From: Desulfobacterales bacterium
GTDB taxonomy: Bacteria; Desulfobacterota; Desulfobacteria; Desulfobacterales; JAIPEE01
DNA: 32,833 nucleotides
NCBI GenBank assembly: GCA_021737275.1
Contig: JAIPEE010000041.1
Span: 1 to 32,833, forward strand
Direction: 5' to 3'
A model generated the notes under the pieces. It saw only the letters and a list, made by a program, of their open reading frames with translations. It did not search any database and was not told the origin of the DNA. The stretch's first letter is position 1, and each line of letters starts with the position of its first letter. The position numbers and the translations under genes are program-made. Of the stretch, positions 17,511 through 22,507 are shown piece by piece.

Positions 17511-18449
17511 ATGGCAAAATCTGACAGGAATGGTATTTTACTTAAATCCGGAACAAATGAAGTTGAAATTGCAGAATTTTTACTGGGCAATCAGAGTTTT
17601 GGTGTCAATGTTGCAAAAATCAAGGAGTTTGTTCCGTTTGAAGAAGATGGCTTGACATGCGTGCCCAATGCCCCGAAATCTCTGATGGGTATGTTTCTGA
17701 TCAGGGGCCGGGCGGTTCCGCTTATAGATCTTAATAGTCACCTGGAAAGGAATGAACAAACTGTTTCACAGCGACCGGTTGTTTTGGTGACGGAGTTTAA
17801 TAATGTGGTCAACGGGTTTACCATAGACAGTATCAAACGAATACACCGGCTTTCATGGGAAGAGATTAAGCCTCTCAGTCCTGTTCTGGCATCTTACAGC
17901 CCAAGAGTAACCGGATCCGTTCATATCGGTGAAGTTGAAATTATGATTCTGGATCTGGAACATATTATTACAGATGTTTTTCCGGAAAGACTTGAGGCTT
18001 TGAGACGTGCCGGAGAGGAAGTTGGTTCGGATACAAAGATGGCGGATAAAAGGGAATCCAAAAGGCTTGTTGTGGCTGAAGATTCCAATGTGATTCGAAA
18101 GCAGATATTAAGTTCACTTATCTCCGGCGGATACAAAAATATTAAGCCCTTCGAAAATGGCTTTGAAGCATTTAGATATATCAATGGCATCAAAGCGTCC
18201 GGCAGAGACGTAAAGGAAGAAGTCGATCTTGTTATTACTGATATCGAGATGCCGCATATGGACGGTTTGACCCTCTGCAAAAGAATCAAGAAAACGCTTC
18301 AGCTTTCCTCTCTGCCTGTGGTGGTGTTTTCATCACTGATAAATGAGCAGATGTCGAGAAAGTGTAAAAGCGTCGGGGCAGACGGCCAGATTACAAAACC
18401 GGAGATAAAAGAACTGGCAAAGCTGGTTGATGGCCTGCTGTATATTTGA
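17511..18449 (+). CDS. cheV: CheV chemotaxis coupling protein (CheW-receiver)
   Basis: This 312-residue protein has a CheW-like domain (about 18-160, with FGVNVAKIKEFVPF and RGRAVPLIDL) and a C-terminal receiver (about 185-305). The receiver has acidic residues Glu190/Asp191, phosphoacceptor Asp244 (VITDIEMPHMDG), Ser274 and Lys296 (TKPE). CheV couples chemoreceptors to CheA in the cytoplasm and helps adaptation through phosphorylation of its receiver. The ATG at 17511 has CAGGAG six bases upstream. No other chemotaxis gene is adjacent, so it acts in trans. Confidence 0.93.
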   Translation: MAKSDRNGILLKSGTNEVEIAEFLLGNQSFGVNVAKIKEFVPFEEDGLTCVPNAPKSLMGMFLIRGRAVPLIDLNSHLERNEQTVSQRPVVLVTEFNNVVNGFTIDSIKRIHRLSWEEIKPLSPVLASYSPRVTGSVHIGEVEIMILDLEHIITDVFPERLEALRRAGEEVGSDTKMADKRESKRLVVAEDSNVIRKQILSSLISGGYKNIKPFENGFEAFRYINGIKASGRDVKEEVDLVITDIEMPHMDGLTLCKRIKKTLQLSSLPVVVFSSLINEQMSRKCKSVGADGQITKPEIKELAKLVDGLLYI

Positions 18450-18704: not shown

Positions 18705-18956
18705 TCAGGCGCAGAGGCGCTGAAGCATTTTATCAATTTTTTGTGAAAAAGAGGCGGGCATACAATTTTGCCTCAAACTTTTACAGATAGTAATTGTTTT
18801 TTTCAATGTTTTTAAGCAATTATCACATTCCAGACATGACTCAACATGTCGGCGGATCTGTTCACATGATGCATCATCAAGCTCACCGTCAATATATTCC
18901 GACAGTTTTTCAAAAAGTTTAATGCATGATTTATGGCTGTGTCCCTGTTCAGTCAT
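18705..18956 (-). CDS. Zinc-finger anti-sigma factor
   Basis: A small protein of 83 residues with the anti-sigma zinc-binding motif HVESCLEC (HX3CX2C) after a helix containing LSEYIDGELD, the zf-HC2/ZAS layout. It is soluble: no TM helix follows the zinc finger, so it resembles redox- or cytoplasm-sensing ZAS proteins more than membrane-spanning ones. The ATG at 18956 overlaps the end of the sigma gene and has AAGGAG ten bases upstream. By position it should bind and inhibit the upstream ECF sigma factor. Extra Cys residues (CDNC, CKSLRQNC) might add redox sensitivity. Confidence 0.85.
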   Translation of the reverse strand: MTEQGHSHKSCIKLFEKLSEYIDGELDDASCEQIRRHVESCLECDNCLKTLKKTITICKSLRQNCMPASFSQKIDKMLQRLCA

Positions 18957-19566
18957 TTTCAAAATACTCCTTCAGCTTCTCTCTCATATATAGCCGGGCT
19001 CTGTGCAGTCTTACCTTAACATTAGAGGTAGAGATATTGAGAATCTTTCCTGTATCGTCACTGCTGAACCCCTCAATATCTCTTAATACAAATACAAGTC
19101 TGTATTTTTCAGGAAGAGAGAGTACTCCCTGTTTTATAATTTCACCCAATTCATCCGTTAGCAGCTGATCAATCGGTCGTGTCGCCCATTCAGGCAATCC
19201 ATCCGGGATATTATCCATATCTTCAGGGATGAAATCATCAAGTGACAGCTCCCGTTCCGGAGCAGATTTTGTTTTCCGCTTTTTTTTCATACAGGCATTT
19301 ATTGCAATTCGAAAAAGCCAGTTTTTAAACGTTGACTCCTTCCTGAAGCCGTCGAGGTGCTCATAAGCGTTTAAAAAAGCATCCTGAACCATCTCTTCGG
19401 CATCGCGAATTTCCCCGCACACTCTAAACCCGAAATTGAAAAGCGGCTGCTCATATTTTTTTACCAGGTTATAAAACAGTTCCGAATGGCCTGCATTAAT
19501 GGCATCTACAAGCTTAAAATCATTTTCCTGGATGGTCATCTGCGGCTGATTTTTTTCTTTTGTCAT
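18949..19566 (-). CDS. ECF sigma factor (RpoE-like)
   Basis: This 205-residue ECF sigma factor has region 2 (about 15-90, with RDAEEMVQDAFLNAYEHLDGFR and FKNWLFRIAINAC) and region 4 (about 140-195, with LPEKYRLVFVLRDIEGFSSDDTG and ISTSNVKVRLHRAR). It should direct RNA polymerase to its own promoters. It overlaps a zinc-finger anti-sigma gene, the usual regulator pair. Both lie at the end of a minus-strand run with a redox membrane module and mobB, so they may control that module or respond to its state. The ATG at 19566 has AAGAAAAG upstream. Confidence 0.92.
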   Translation of the reverse strand: MTKEKNQPQMTIQENDFKLVDAINAGHSELFYNLVKKYEQPLFNFGFRVCGEIRDAEEMVQDAFLNAYEHLDGFRKESTFKNWLFRIAINACMKKKRKTKSAPERELSLDDFIPEDMDNIPDGLPEWATRPIDQLLTDELGEIIKQGVLSLPEKYRLVFVLRDIEGFSSDDTGKILNISTSNVKVRLHRARLYMREKLKEYFEND

Positions 19567-19597
19567 CTTTTCTTGTCACCTGACAAGCATTTTTCAT

Positions 19598-19687
19598 TCA
19601 CGTTGAAATACCTAACTTCGGCAGTATATAAGCCTGCAGAAGAAACCAGATTAGAAAAAATCCTATAAATATTAACGCTTCTACCAT
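19598..19687 (-). CDS. 29-residue single-TM membrane peptide
   Basis: A frame starting MVEALIFIG and ending ILPKLGIST has a continuous hydrophobic helix (about 4-22) and an AAGGAG six bases before its ATG. It sits nine bases after the cytochrome b stop and 31 before the sigma gene, so it fills the gap exactly. Small single-TM subunits accompany several cytochrome b and oxidoreductase complexes. The strong ribosome-binding site and placement support translation; function is inference. Confidence 0.65.
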   Translation of the reverse strand: MVEALIFIGFFLIWFLLQAYILPKLGIST

Positions 19688-19696
19688 TTTATCTCC

Positions 19697-20185
19697 TTAC
19701 CTTAAAGTTAATTGTTCTTTTGTTAACGGCAGTACCCAGCTCTTTTTGAAAATGACCGCATAAAATGAAACCATAAAAAGAATGATAACAAGACTAATGT
19801 GTATAATATCCAGAAAAATAATAAAGCCGGAAGAGAGATATACGTCCGACAGGTTTCGATATACCAGGAAAGCACCGGATAAAATAATACCCAGCAGCAT
19901 AACAACACGCACATAACCTGAAATGGTGATCCGTATATGTTTGCGATATTCTAAAAGATACAATGTTATCATATATCCTGAAATACACAGAAAAATGGCA
20001 GCACCAAGATAGTGAATATAATGCGTAACATAAAATTCCGCCAGCCAGCCGAGGCCCGGGATATCGGCAATATAGTATCTTTTAAAAATCGGCATCTGGG
20101 CAAAACCGCTCAGTGTTAGAAAAAACAGCGTAAACAGATATACCGGACGGACGATTTTGTGTTGAGCTAATAATTGATTACGCAT
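19697..20185 (-). CDS. Cytochrome b-type membrane subunit
   Basis: A 162-residue protein with four TM helices (about 15-30, 52-79, 88-110, 121-146). His9, His55, His58 and His129 are positioned near helices and are plausible haem b ligands, as in formate dehydrogenase/hydrogenase cytochrome b subunits. It should carry electrons between the exported ferredoxin encoded just upstream and the quinone pool. The ATG at 20185 has GGAGG eight bases upstream and overlaps the ferredoxin stop by eight bases, which fixes the pairing. An earlier ATG at 20209 would overlap more and lacks a site. The exact family is not certain. Confidence 0.7.
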   Translation of the reverse strand: MRNQLLAQHKIVRPVYLFTLFFLTLSGFAQMPIFKRYYIADIPGLGWLAEFYVTHYIHYLGAAIFLCISGYMITLYLLEYRKHIRITISGYVRVVMLLGIILSGAFLVYRNLSDVYLSSGFIIFLDIIHISLVIILFMVSFYAVIFKKSWVLPLTKEQLTLR

Positions 20186-21158
20186 GATCATTACCTCCGT
20201 TATCGGCATTTTTTGACATCAAAAACAGTTTTCCTGCGGCGGCGGCAATTCCTGCAACCGGCGCAAGGAGCATAGCCGTGGTCAGGTTATTGGCATCGGC
20301 CATGGTATCTTTGGCAGCGCTAAAATGAGGTTTGCCATCTCCTTTTTCAATAGCTGCTTCAATTTCTTCAAAAGGTACCGGGGAGACATAAATTGTATTG
20401 GTGCCGCCATTTTCATGCTCACCATAGATATATCCATTTATTGATTTGGCCAGTTCATGTGCTTTTTTGATAATTTCATCCCGTGGCCCTATCGTTTGAA
20501 CCCCTTCAGGGCAGGCTTCAATGCAGGCCGGTATTTCTCCATCAGCAATGCGATCATAACAGCGATCGCATTTATACATCACACCGTTACCGGCAAGGGA
20601 GGGAAGAATATCAAGATATAATCCGGTACCGGTCTGACGCTGCGGAATATCCCAGGGACAGACGGATTTACACTTTGATCCGCCGAGGCAAAGGTCGGAA
20701 TCAATTCTTGATAGTCCATTTTCTTGTTGTTTTGCCGCACCCCAGGGACAAAGTTTTACACACGGCGGGTTTTTACAGTGCATGCAACGGCGCGGGATAG
20801 TCAGCGTCGTCTTTTCACCATTAACCATAACTGTTGCACTCTGGATAAAGAGCCAGTTATACGGCGTCAGCCTGTCTGTGACATCCTGCTTATCGGACCA
20901 GTCTTCCACCTTAACCCGGGATGGAACCATTTTAGGAAAGGGCTTTTCAGGTTTTGGATATTTATTAAAATTGCTTTCATTACAGGCATAAACACACTCT
21001 TCACAGCCGATACAATCGCTGATATTAATTAATGTTGCCAGTTGCTTGTCGTTACCGGGTGTTTTAATGGCTGCTGCTGCCGCACCGCCGGTTGCCAGGG
21101 TGCAGGCGGCAGCCATTCCACCTTTTAAAAATGAGCGCCGGGATAATTTTCCAGACAT
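20178..21158 (-). CDS. Tat-exported multi-cluster ferredoxin subunit (FdnH/HybA-like)
   Basis: A 326-residue protein with a twin-arginine signal (SRRSFLKGG at about 6-14) and the cysteine pattern of the beta subunits of formate dehydrogenase-N, HybA and PsrB. The groups are CIGCEECVYAC (49-59), CMHCKNPPCVKLC (125-137), CLGGSKCKSVC (157-167) and CDRC...CIEAC (197-216). The third group has Gly where the second Cys is normal (position 160), so one cluster may be [3Fe-4S]. A C-terminal hydrophobic helix (about 293-315) would anchor it to the membrane. The start at 21158 follows GGAGG; an upstream GTG is less likely. It should pass electrons from a periplasmic enzyme to the adjacent cytochrome b, but no catalytic subunit is encoded here. 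Confidence 0.85.
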   Translation of the reverse strand: MSGKLSRRSFLKGGMAAACTLATGGAAAAAIKTPGNDKQLATLINISDCIGCEECVYACNESNFNKYPKPEKPFPKMVPSRVKVEDWSDKQDVTDRLTPYNWLFIQSATVMVNGEKTTLTIPRRCMHCKNPPCVKLCPWGAAKQQENGLSRIDSDLCLGGSKCKSVCPWDIPQRQTGTGLYLDILPSLAGNGVMYKCDRCYDRIADGEIPACIEACPEGVQTIGPRDEIIKKAHELAKSINGYIYGEHENGGTNTIYVSPVPFEEIEAAIEKGDGKPHFSAAKDTMADANNLTTAMLLAPVAGIAAAAGKLFLMSKNADNGGNDHA

Positions 21159-21242
21159 ATGGCCTCCATAAAGTTGATTCACAAAATCGGGATTCTTACC
21201 GTCAGTAAATATAGAGTCGGATTTTTAAAAAAGGTTACAAAA

Positions 21243-22028
21243 TTATATTTTAATATTCTGTGAAATATAATCACGGACACTCTGAACAGCCATGATAATA
21301 TCTTTAGATTGGGGAAGTGTTGCCGCGATCCGGTCAATAATCTTTTTTTCCGATACATGTTTCAGTGCAGCCGTATAATTCAGATCAAATACCCAGCTTA
21401 TCTGAAGAAGTTTAAAATCATTAACCGTTTTCAGGTTCTCCATGCGGCCAGGCATTTTTGCCTGAAGGCTCTCAATGAAATGTTGAGAATATTGCGGTGT
21501 ATCAGGCAGGCCGATCACAATCGTGGAATCAGAAACTGATGACATCTGTTTATAATGTGCGATCATGACATGCCAGATGTCCAGCTTGTCTGCGTCTCTG
21601 ATGAGTTTCATAAACATAAGGGCTTTTTCATTTGAGGATACAGGCAGATTCAATGCATTGTGCCCGGCAATGGCGCCGGCAATGAAACGTTTTTCCTTAA
21701 TCGTGCATCGATTCAGAATGCCGGCTGCTGAAAGCTGTCTCAGACCCAGTTTTGCATGATTTACCGAGGCTGAATCTTTAAATGTGCCAAATTGTTTAAA
21801 CTGTTCAAAACGGCCGACATCATGAAAGAGTGCAATGGTTTCAGCGATAAATATGTCATCAATCGGCAGGTCCAGAGATCGGGCGAGCATAATAATGTTC
21901 CGGCGGACACGACGGGTGTGATCTTCCTTGAGATGCATCGCATCGTTATGGGTATGGTTATCCGTATAATAACCTGAGACATACCGGGTAAACCAGGAAT
22001 CAAAAAAGTTTAGATCTTCATGGGTCAT
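21243..22028 (-). CDS. HD-domain phosphohydrolase
   Basis: A 261-residue HD-superfamily protein. Metal ligands are His37 (EDHTRRV), His69-Asp70 (LFHDVGRF) and an Asp in RDADKLD (about 145-150), the H...HD...D pattern of divalent-metal phosphohydrolases. It lacks the GYP motif, so it is not an obvious c-di-GMP HD-GYP enzyme. Its substrate (a nucleotide or other phosphoester) is unknown. Its ATG overlaps the mobB stop by four bases, linking it to cofactor metabolism by position. An 84-base gap separates it from the ferredoxin gene. Confidence 0.85.
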   Translation of the reverse strand: MTHEDLNFFDSWFTRYVSGYYTDNHTHNDAMHLKEDHTRRVRRNIIMLARSLDLPIDDIFIAETIALFHDVGRFEQFKQFGTFKDSASVNHAKLGLRQLSAAGILNRCTIKEKRFIAGAIAGHNALNLPVSSNEKALMFMKLIRDADKLDIWHVMIAHYKQMSSVSDSTIVIGLPDTPQYSQHFIESLQAKMPGRMENLKTVNDFKLLQISWVFDLNYTAALKHVSEKKIIDRIAATLPQSKDIIMAVQSVRDYISQNIKI

Positions 22029-22507
22029 AAGATCTTTTTTTCAATATAATCAGTAAGTTCAATTATTGACTCAAGTCCAAACCTGGGTACATTAAGGTCG
22101 ATATCGATATCCGTAACGACGGCAATCAGGCTTTTATGGTCAAGGCAGACAGGCTCCTTATGATTATCTGAACGAATGACTTCAATTTTGGGCGTTTCCG
22201 TTCGTTTAAACCCTTCGGTGATAACAAGATCCATATCGGGGAAATATTTTTCAAGTGCTGCGGGAGAATCCGCTGTTTCGTTTTTGATCATCGCAATTTT
22301 ATCTTTGGATGATAACATAACTGCGTCTGCACCGGCTCTCATATGCTGAAAACTGTCTTTGTCTTCACGGTCCACATCAAATCCGTGGAAAGCATGCTTG
22401 ATGATGCCAACCCTGTAGCCCTTTTTTTTAAGTTCAGGAATAAGTTTCGCAATAAGTGTGGTTTTGCCTGAATCGGAATTTCCAACAATAGATATAACTG
22501 GCGGCAT
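22025..22507 (-). CDS. mobB: MobB, molybdopterin-guanine dinucleotide adapter
   Basis: A 160-residue P-loop GTPase with Walker A GNSDSGKTTL (9-18), the MobB-type IIKHAFHGFDVDREDKDSFQH, RAGADAVML, and DLVITEGFKR. MobB assists MobA in making or delivering bis-MGD cofactor to molybdenum/tungsten enzymes in the cytoplasm. It heads the minus-strand run, overlapping the HD gene by four bases. Its presence next to a formate-dehydrogenase-type ferredoxin subunit suggests that the partner enzyme is a molybdopterin protein encoded elsewhere. Confidence 0.9.
   Translation of the reverse strand: MPPVISIVGNSDSGKTTLIAKLIPELKKKGYRVGIIKHAFHGFDVDREDKDSFQHMRAGADAVMLSSKDKIAMIKNETADSPAALEKYFPDMDLVITEGFKRTETPKIEVIRSDNHKEPVCLDHKSLIAVVTDIDIDLNVPRFGLESIIELTDYIEKKIL

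What the first reader, a model, noticed from the sequence alone, without database searches (positions are those of the whole stretch)
18705..22507. Redox membrane module without a catalytic subunit, coupled to mobB, an HD protein and an ECF sigma pair
Seven genes run in one direction with overlaps or short gaps: mobB, HD hydrolase, Tat-exported ferredoxin, cytochrome b, a 29-residue TM peptide, ECF sigma and anti-sigma. The ferredoxin and cytochrome b resemble formate-dehydrogenase/PsrB electron-transfer subunits, but no molybdopterin enzyme is present. It may serve an enzyme encoded elsewhere, or act as a redox sensor feeding the sigma factor.
Basis: partly seen in the sequence, partly recalled or inferred. 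Interest (0 to 1): 0.6.

Follow-up and report, generated by a model that had tools for sequence, protein, structure and literature searches.

The report
Hidden selenoprotein in a sigma-factor operon
A tiny "29-residue peptide" next to two electron-transfer genes is really the first half of an apparently undescribed 55-residue membrane selenoprotein, found in most sampled genomes of this bacterial class, whose selenium-insertion signal sits right at the start of a stress sigma-factor gene.

Summary
The seven genes are there, but two readings change. (1) The 29-residue peptide ends at a UGA that is very probably selenocysteine. All 25 distinct relatives first found by the upstream half alone end in TGA, and each continues in frame into a conserved segment (U-M/L-x-D/N-A/S-C) with a covarying SECIS-like hairpin. 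The genome has SelB, tRNA-Sec and a UGA-containing FdhA; one Acidobacteriota relative has Cys there. So this is a 55-aa, one-helix selenoprotein (SEL), in 238 of 291 class genomes, unmatched in Pfam, NCBIfam and a 2026 catalogue of 119 selenoprotein families. (2) An ECF-type promoter lies between HD and ferredoxin, so the likely unit is ferredoxin–cytochrome b–SEL–sigma–anti-sigma; mobB and HD lie outside. Where sigma follows SEL, its start codon lies inside SEL, 34–40 nt from the UGA, just past the hairpin, in 25 of 28 loci (such an ATG in 4 of 36 without sigma): selenium supply could set sigma translation (untested). No orphan exported molybdopterin subunit was seen. Likeliest function, inferred: a quinone-linked thiol/selenol relay under a redox-stress sigma factor. 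All biochemistry is untested.

The parts
19520..19687 (-). SEL: 55-residue single-helix membrane selenoprotein (29 residues, Sec at 30, 25 residues, stop TGA 19520-19522); UX4C pair Sec30/Cys35
   Evidence: Read-through and conservation; class and phylum searches; no Pfam/NCBIfam match:
19598..19600 (-). UGA read as selenocysteine
   Evidence: TGA in all 34 ORFs (25 distinct) found from the upstream half alone; Cys codon in one Acidobacteriota homologue
19572..19587 (-). SECIS-like hairpin, 6-bp stem, AGGU loop that begins 16 nt after the UGA
   Evidence: Fold -6.9 kcal/mol, z -2.28; covariation; stem and loop counts in 66 copies
19576..19581 (-). AGGUGA in the hairpin, the best Shine-Dalgarno-like string upstream of the sigma start
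   Evidence: by eye; function inferred
18949..19566 (-). ECF sigma factor; start codon inside SEL, 34 nt from the first base of the UGA (a later in-frame ATG lies at +61, also inside SEL)
   Evidence: PF04542/PF08281; start position in relatives
18705..18962 (-). zinc-binding anti-sigma factor (zf-HC2; HVESCLEC = HX3CX2C)
   Evidence: PF13490 36.4 bits; TIGR03988 RsrA 32.2 bits, below its cut-off 62.5
19697..20209 (-). small membrane protein, about four helices in a low-confidence model, two invariant His; probable b-type cytochrome
   Evidence: (pLDDT 62); no family match
20178..21182 (-). Tat-signal multi-cluster ferredoxin with C-terminal helix, HmcB/HybA/FdnH-like; likely true start ATG at 21158
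   Evidence: NF045715 HmcB 137 bits (cut-off 420), 1kqf_B E 4.3e-21; RR and 15 invariant Cys in relatives; helix by eye
21210..21239 (-). predicted ECF-type promoter TGTAACC-N14-GACTCTATA of the ferredoxin–anti-sigma unit
   Evidence: only match to the strict pattern in the held genome
21243..22028 (-). HD-domain protein; neighbour, upstream of the promoter
22025..22507 (-). mobB; neighbour, upstream of the promoter
   Evidence: PF03205, TIGR00176 137.7 bits over cut-off 76.2

Best explanation
The locus is an autoregulated extracytoplasmic-redox operon: ECF-type promoter, Tat-exported Fe-S protein, small cytochrome b, a 55-residue membrane selenoprotein (SEL) mistaken for a 29-residue peptide, ECF sigma, zinc anti-sigma. 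SHOWN from sequence: the SEL frame is conserved across its UGA, with a SECIS-like hairpin, a Cys homologue, and presence in 238 of 291 class genomes; the promoter motif precedes the unit in most ECF-linked loci; the sigma start lies inside SEL just after the hairpin. INFERRED: an oxidised anti-sigma releases sigma, which transcribes the operon; the Fe-S protein and cytochrome b connect the quinone pool to thiols, and the Sec/Cys pair of SEL passes electrons to or from thioredoxin-like proteins. No molybdopterin subunit is needed. My confidence: selenoprotein about 0.95, self-regulated unit about 0.85, thiol/selenol relay about 0.5.
For: Selenoprotein: 34 of 34 ORFs (25 distinct) collected from the upstream half end in TGA; in 66 distinct copies no in-frame stop follows for at least 17 codons (other frames: median 6 and 13), with a coding-type codon pattern; hairpin covariation, pair 15-28 U-A 13 / C-G 11 / U-G 1, covariation score 0 of 500 shuffles; SelB 372 bits over cut-off 242, tRNA-Sec 73 bits over 47, FdhA with in-frame TGA before His (93); Cys homologue E 2.9e-11 with the Sec column masked, overlapping a thioredoxin-family ORF (54, 56, 59, 74, 93). 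In the phylum sample SEL is commoner with SelB (158 of 353) than without (8 of 42; p 0.0015, confounded by completeness). Self-regulation: motif upstream in 23 of 28 ECF-linked versus 1 of 36 other copies. Thiol link: RsrA-like score of the anti-sigma; thioredoxin-family ORF beside the pair in 12 of 56 loci; in genome G118 the three strict promoter hits precede the operon, a CcdA-like plus thioredoxin-like pair and a thioredoxin-reductase-like ORF (names by eye).
Against: SEL and cytochrome b do not co-occur beyond chance in the class (102 both, 17 cytochrome only, 136 SEL only, 36 neither; p 0.17). SelB over its cut-off is missing from 37 of 291 class genomes, and 26 of the 36 visible ones carry SEL; in the phylum 8 SEL-bearing genomes lack it, and a full rescoring of seven found none over cut-off, only pieces in some. 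In 30 class genomes of at most 10 contigs, 30 have SelB and 28 have SEL, so gaps in draft genomes are the likely cause, not proven. Two of five pairing measures do not beat shuffles (403 and 418 of 500). The window hairpin misses the published -7.5 kcal/mol filter (-6.9); 39 of 66 copies meet it. The motif precedes ccdA in 3 of 19 ECF-linked loci, all of one family (0 of 9 others). Outside the operons the promoter pattern gives 13 hits in 16 genomes, 7 of them in one, against 8 in reversed controls. Topology of SEL is undecided. The 66 copies were partly chosen for TGA and the Cys, so only the first 25 are unbiased.
Confidence: 0.65

Rival explanations
1. The UGA is a true stop; the 29-residue peptide is a leader, and the hairpin is only an RNA element controlling translation of the sigma gene.
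For: Where sigma follows, its start lies 34-40 nt from the UGA, just past the hairpin. The hairpin alone could explain some conservation of Cys-Gln-Val. Some SEL-bearing genomes lack a SelB over cut-off.
Against: Frame, residues and hairpin are conserved also in 36 copies without a sigma gene within 900 nt; Asp/Asn and Ala/Ser codons next to the UGA vary at synonymous sites; a Cys homologue reads straight through; Sec machinery is present in the window genome.
Confidence: 0.04
2. Ferredoxin and cytochrome b are the electron-transfer arm of a molybdopterin oxidoreductase encoded elsewhere.
For: The ferredoxin is like HmcB/HybA/FdnH and mobB is near; the genome has four PF00384 proteins.
Against: None of the four looks like an exported orphan: two have partners of their own, two lack a Tat signal by eye. 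In 60 neighbourhoods of the pair no relative of their molybdopterin domains was found (E up to 1e-5, these four queries only). mobB also flanks SEL without the pair.
Confidence: 0.1
3. SEL is a metal- or selenium-handling or purely structural small membrane protein, not a thiol relay.
For: A copper-type P-type ATPase stands upstream of SEL in 5 of 40 loci; SEL occurs without the redox pair; small one-helix subunits such as CydX stabilise oxidases (recalled).
Against: Sec and Cys are invariant with fixed spacing in the 25 first copies, as in redox pairs; the Cys homologue overlaps a thioredoxin-family gene; the anti-sigma scores towards RsrA.
Confidence: 0.25

Closest known systems
Bacterial selenoproteins (catalogue of 119 families/subfamilies, PMC13188914 Table 1; parts 1 and 2 of 3 of section 7 read)
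   Same: In-frame UGA, SECIS-like hairpin directly after it, Sec beside a Cys, Cys homologue
   Different: No row names a T-U-x4-C motif or a small one-helix protein (several rows give no motif); closest spacing is UxxxxU of TsoB, a rhodanese/DsbD fusion
HmcB / HybA / FdnH-type exported ferredoxins
   Same: Tat signal, multiple clusters, C-terminal helix (NF045715 137 bits; 1kqf_B E 4.3e-21)
   Different: Below the curated cut-offs shown; 15 invariant Cys, Gly at the place of a sixteenth; no catalytic partner gene beside it
Sigma-R/RsrA and other ECF sigma – zinc anti-sigma pairs
   Same: ECF sigma followed by zf-HC2 anti-sigma, predicted self-regulated promoter; TIGR03988 RsrA partial score
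   Different: Below the RsrA cut-off; sigma start embedded in a selenoprotein gene after its SECIS
SelB autoregulation of E. coli (mentioned in PMC8124441, passages seen; that a SECIS-like element is bound is recalled)
   Same: SelB may govern translation of a neighbouring gene
   Different: Here the hairpin would be a working SECIS inside a selenoprotein gene and the controlled gene a sigma factor

Membership tests
Bacterial selenoprotein | Conserved in-frame UGA with conserved coding sequence after it | tested here: met
   34 of 34 ORFs, 25 distinct, found without using the downstream part; 66 distinct copies (partly selected for the motif)
Bacterial selenoprotein | Homologue with Cys at the Sec position | tested here: met
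   One Acidobacteriota ORF, E 2.9e-11 with Sec column masked; only one found, with a strict motif
Bacterial selenoprotein | Sec machinery in the same genome | tested here: met
   Window genome: SelB and tRNA-Sec over cut-off, FdhA with UGA; SelA and SelD not searched. Across genomes: not always
Bacterial selenoprotein | Selenium in the protein | not testable with these tools
   needs labelling or mass spectrometry
Published bSECIS model (PMC13188914 section 5) | Loop 3-9 nt, stem 4-16 bp, G in the first two loop positions, loop 16-37 nt after UGA | tested here: met
   Loop 4, stem 6, AGGU, 16 nt; in 66 copies 37 have all 6 pairs and 29 have 5
Published bSECIS model (PMC13188914 section 5) | MFE at or below -7.5 kcal/mol | tested here: not met
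   Window -6.9; 39 of 66 copies meet it. So it is called SECIS-like, not filed under the strict model
Any of the 119 catalogued selenoprotein families / NCBIfam / Pfam | Match to a family model | tested here: not met
   0 families at E up to 10; Table 1 read by eye
HmcB (NF045715) | Score over curated cut-off 420 | tested here: not met
   137 bits; HybA 123.8 of 263, DsrO 88.6 of 200
Formate-dehydrogenase-type cytochrome b | Family match | tested here: not met
   No Pfam/NCBIfam match, no PDB match below E 0.2; two invariant His only
ECF sigma factor with ZAS anti-sigma | Regions 2 and 4; zinc-finger anti-sigma in the next gene | tested here: met
   PF04542, PF08281, PF13490 over cut-offs
RsrA (TIGR03988) | Score over cut-off 62.5 | tested here: not met
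   32.2 bits: may work like it, not filed as it

The most novel reading that the evidence does not exclude
The SECIS of SEL doubles as a selenium-responsive translational switch for the sigma factor. The sigma start codon lies 34-40 nt from the UGA, its best Shine-Dalgarno-like string (AGGUGA) is the hairpin loop and stem itself, and an upstream start in its frame is blocked by a stop at +22 in 22 of 28 loci. SelB with Sec-tRNA on the hairpin, or a ribosome stalled at or passing the UGA, would then set how much sigma is made, so that selenium supply tunes a redox-stress response. The direction of the effect is open.
Probability: 0.35. Interest if true: 0.92.

Novelty: new variant of a known kind. 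Interest (0 to 1): 0.8.

Why it matters
A membrane microprotein carried by about four in five sampled genomes of a class of bacteria that probably includes Desulfosarcina would be a selenoprotein that a standard ORF call ends at its UGA. Homology-based selenoprotein searches lean on Cys homologues (PMC13188914 and PMC12013277, passages seen), and here only one was found, which may explain why it is in no catalogue that I saw. It also gives the orphan ferredoxin–cytochrome b pair a candidate redox partner in place of a missing molybdoenzyme, and offers a testable case of a SECIS that may control a transcription factor.

Tried and rejected
Molybdopterin partner: four PF00384 proteins of the genome looked at with their neighbours and compared with 60 neighbourhoods; no exported orphan seen. 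Phyletic dependence on SelB: mixed. SelB is over cut-off in 254 of 291 and 353 of 395 genomes; the association is favourable in the phylum (p 0.0015), but 26 SEL-bearing class genomes and 8 in the phylum lack it; the SelB-negative genomes were read off the rows shown, one class and one phylum genome not being visible. Co-occurrence of SEL with cytochrome b: not significant. Structure of the membrane protein: single-sequence model too poor (pLDDT 62), so no fold search was run. Regulon in the window genome: the strict pattern gives only the operon itself; a looser one gives one more place, at chance level (2 hits against 6 in the reversed control), before no gene that I recognise. Membrane orientation of SEL by charge: undecided, 42 of 66. 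Recalled, from no call: CydX; the SECIS-like element of E. coli selAB. Not in print, as far as searched: (five peptide strings, 0 papers); listings only, apart from PMC13188914 (outline, sections 5 and 9, parts 1 and 2 of section 7, passages) and PMC12013277, PMC9312934 and PMC8124441 (passages). Supplementary files could not be read.
Full report
What was checked. The window carries on its minus strand mobB, an HD protein, a Tat-type ferredoxin, a small membrane protein, a 29-codon ORF, an ECF sigma factor and a zinc anti-sigma. The genome held for the window has 4.26 Mb in 104 contigs, 96% complete. The full seven-gene order was seen in two of the 20 neighbourhoods examined first, both from one other genus (L043, L044). 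The shorter order ferredoxin–cytochrome b–peptide–ECF recurs in several families.

The 29-residue peptide. Searching neighbourhoods of the cytochrome b gene with the peptide alone gave 34 ORFs, 25 distinct with the window's own. Every one ends in TGA, and the frame after TGA stays conserved: U-[MLV]-x-[DN]-[AS]-C-[QR]-[VL] in most, with Cys 35 in all 25. I call the read-through product SEL. A profile search reading through stops finds SEL in 238 of 291 class genomes at E up to 0.1 (three of them weaker than 0.001), in 111 of 123 genera, and in 166 of 395 genomes across the phylum at E up to 0.001 (this set includes 17 genomes of the class sample). All rows displayed carry TGA except one match that ends before that place (G610); undisplayed rows were not seen. 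In 57 copies found by a motif that demanded the Cys but allowed Cys or any stop at the Sec place, 57 have TGA; 40 of these loci had been picked from rows already showing TGA. Over 66 distinct copies the Sec position is residue 30 in 64 and the length 45-68; no in-frame stop follows for at least 17 codons in 66 of 66, whereas the other two frames close after a median of 6 and 13 codons.

SECIS. The 25 first copies share a hairpin whose loop begins 16 nt after the UGA. Pairs 15-28 and 18-25 covary (U-A to C-G); no shuffle of 500 reaches the covariation score or the number of double changes, 3 of 500 reach the share of paired cells, while two further measures do not beat shuffles (403 and 418 of 500); slid structures score lower on covariation. 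In 66 copies the loop is AGGU in 53, AGUU in 12 and GGUU in 1; 37 have six of six pairs and 29 have five. Four of five criteria of the published bacterial model (PMC13188914, section 5 read) are met; the energy filter (-7.5 kcal/mol) is missed by the window (-6.9) and met by 39 of 66.

Sec machinery and the Cys homologue. The window genome has SelB (372 bits, cut-off 242), tRNA-Sec (73 bits, cut-off 47) and an FdhA with one in-frame TGA followed by His and a hairpin with loop GGUCU. Across genomes the picture is mixed. In the phylum sample SEL occurs in 158 of 353 genomes with SelB and 8 of 42 without (p 0.0015). In the class SelB is over cut-off in 254 of 291, and 26 of the 36 visible negatives still carry SEL. 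Seven of the eight phylum cases were rescored in full; none is over cut-off, though at least two hold pieces. Of 30 class genomes in at most 10 contigs, 30 have SelB and 28 have SEL, so draft gaps are the likely cause. A strict Cys-form motif gave one match in the species-level genome collection: a Bryobacteraceae MAG with a 54-residue ORF of the same design, Cys for Sec. With the Sec column masked it scores E 2.9e-11 for 5000 sequences. Its start overlaps the end of a thioredoxin/redoxin-family ORF by 4 nt.

Promoter and sigma start. 30 of 66 copies have an ECF gene within 900 nt downstream; two of these are first copies of tandem pairs and were left out of the counts below. Of the remaining 28, 25 have an ATG in the +1 frame 34, 37 or 40 nt from the first base of the UGA, inside SEL; of 36 copies without ECF, 4 have one (Fisher p 1.5e-10). 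An upstream start in the sigma frame is blocked by a stop at +22 in 22 of 28. The spacer between hairpin and start is A-rich with no clear ribosome-binding site of its own; AGGUGA in the hairpin is the best candidate (18 of 28 have CAGGTGA there, by eye). Upstream of the unit (before the ferredoxin in 18, before SEL in 10) the motif TGTAAC[CT]-N13..15-G-N-[GCT]-TC occurs in 23 of 28 ECF-linked copies and 1 of 36 others (p 1.4e-11; shuffles average 0.02 of 28). The loci are related and the motif was chosen on them, so these p values overstate the case. In the window genome the strict form occurs once, at 21210-21239, with 0 in the reversed control. It lies between HD and ferredoxin, so mobB and HD are probably a separate unit. 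Over 16 ECF-bearing genomes the strict form gives 24 hits against 8 in reversed controls; 11 lie at the operon itself, 13 elsewhere, 7 of these in G267.

Function. The ferredoxin is highly conserved (62-74% identity in 20 loci), with twin Arg and 15 invariant Cys; in 54 of 54 sequences Gly stands at the place of the second Cys of one cluster motif, so one cluster may be [3Fe-4S] (inference). The membrane protein keeps two His. Some neighbours point to thiol chemistry: a thioredoxin-like ORF beside the pair in 12 of 56 loci and a rhodanese protein on the other strand some 3.6 kb away in 10 of 56 (one representative each checked in Pfam), one locus (L071) with SEL, a regulator, the thioredoxin, ferredoxin and cytochrome b together, and in G118 promoter hits before a CcdA-like/thioredoxin pair and a thioredoxin-reductase-like ORF. 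A wider test of ccdA upstream regions found the motif in 3 of 19 ECF-linked loci, one of them 293 nt before a partial match, and 0 of 9 others, so the regulon claim holds at most for one family. Against a fixed complex: SEL and cytochrome b co-occur at chance level in the class, and in the 40 loci L111-L150 SEL stands near other genes: mobB in 11, HD in 8, ECF in 8 by clustering (10 by the later search), P-type ATPase in 5.

Known or new. SEL matches no model in Pfam or NCBIfam at E up to 10, and no row of the 119-family table in PMC13188914 shows its motif (several rows give none). deep-Sep (PMC12013277, passages seen) accepts candidates with a known Sec homologue or Cys homologues; it lists Desulfosarcina ovata at 7,630,248 bases with 24 known and 0 new selenoproteins. 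Genome G226, contig length 7,630,248, is probably that genome and carries SEL; whether SEL is among the 24 cannot be told from the passages.

Noticed in passing
L040 5669-5983 and L017 2134-2520: Two different SEL genes in tandem ahead of the ECF gene, each with its own UGA and hairpin.
   Followed up: partly
L151 620-1302: Acidobacteriota Cys form of SEL overlaps the 3' end of a TlpA/ResA-like thioredoxin gene.
   Followed up: partly
window 20178-21182: One ferredoxin cluster motif has Gly in place of the second Cys in 54 of 54 sequences, hinting at a [3Fe-4S] cluster.
   Followed up: partly
L113, L118, L132, L136, L137, L138, L146: SEL lies behind a histidine kinase – small lipoprotein-like ORF – response-regulator-like trio, all in genomes of one family (lipoprotein by eye).
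   Followed up: no
genome G267, loci L158, L168 and L170-L175: Eight promoter-pattern hits in one genome (one at its SEL operon), several of a TGTAACC-N15-GTCTC form, perhaps another sigma factor's sites or a repeat.
   Followed up: partly
window 17511-18449 (+): CheW domain fused to a receiver domain (CheV-like), convergent with the operon.
   Followed up: no
window 19572-19587 (+): The SECIS palindrome is also picked up as a terminator-like site on the opposite strand.
   Followed up: no
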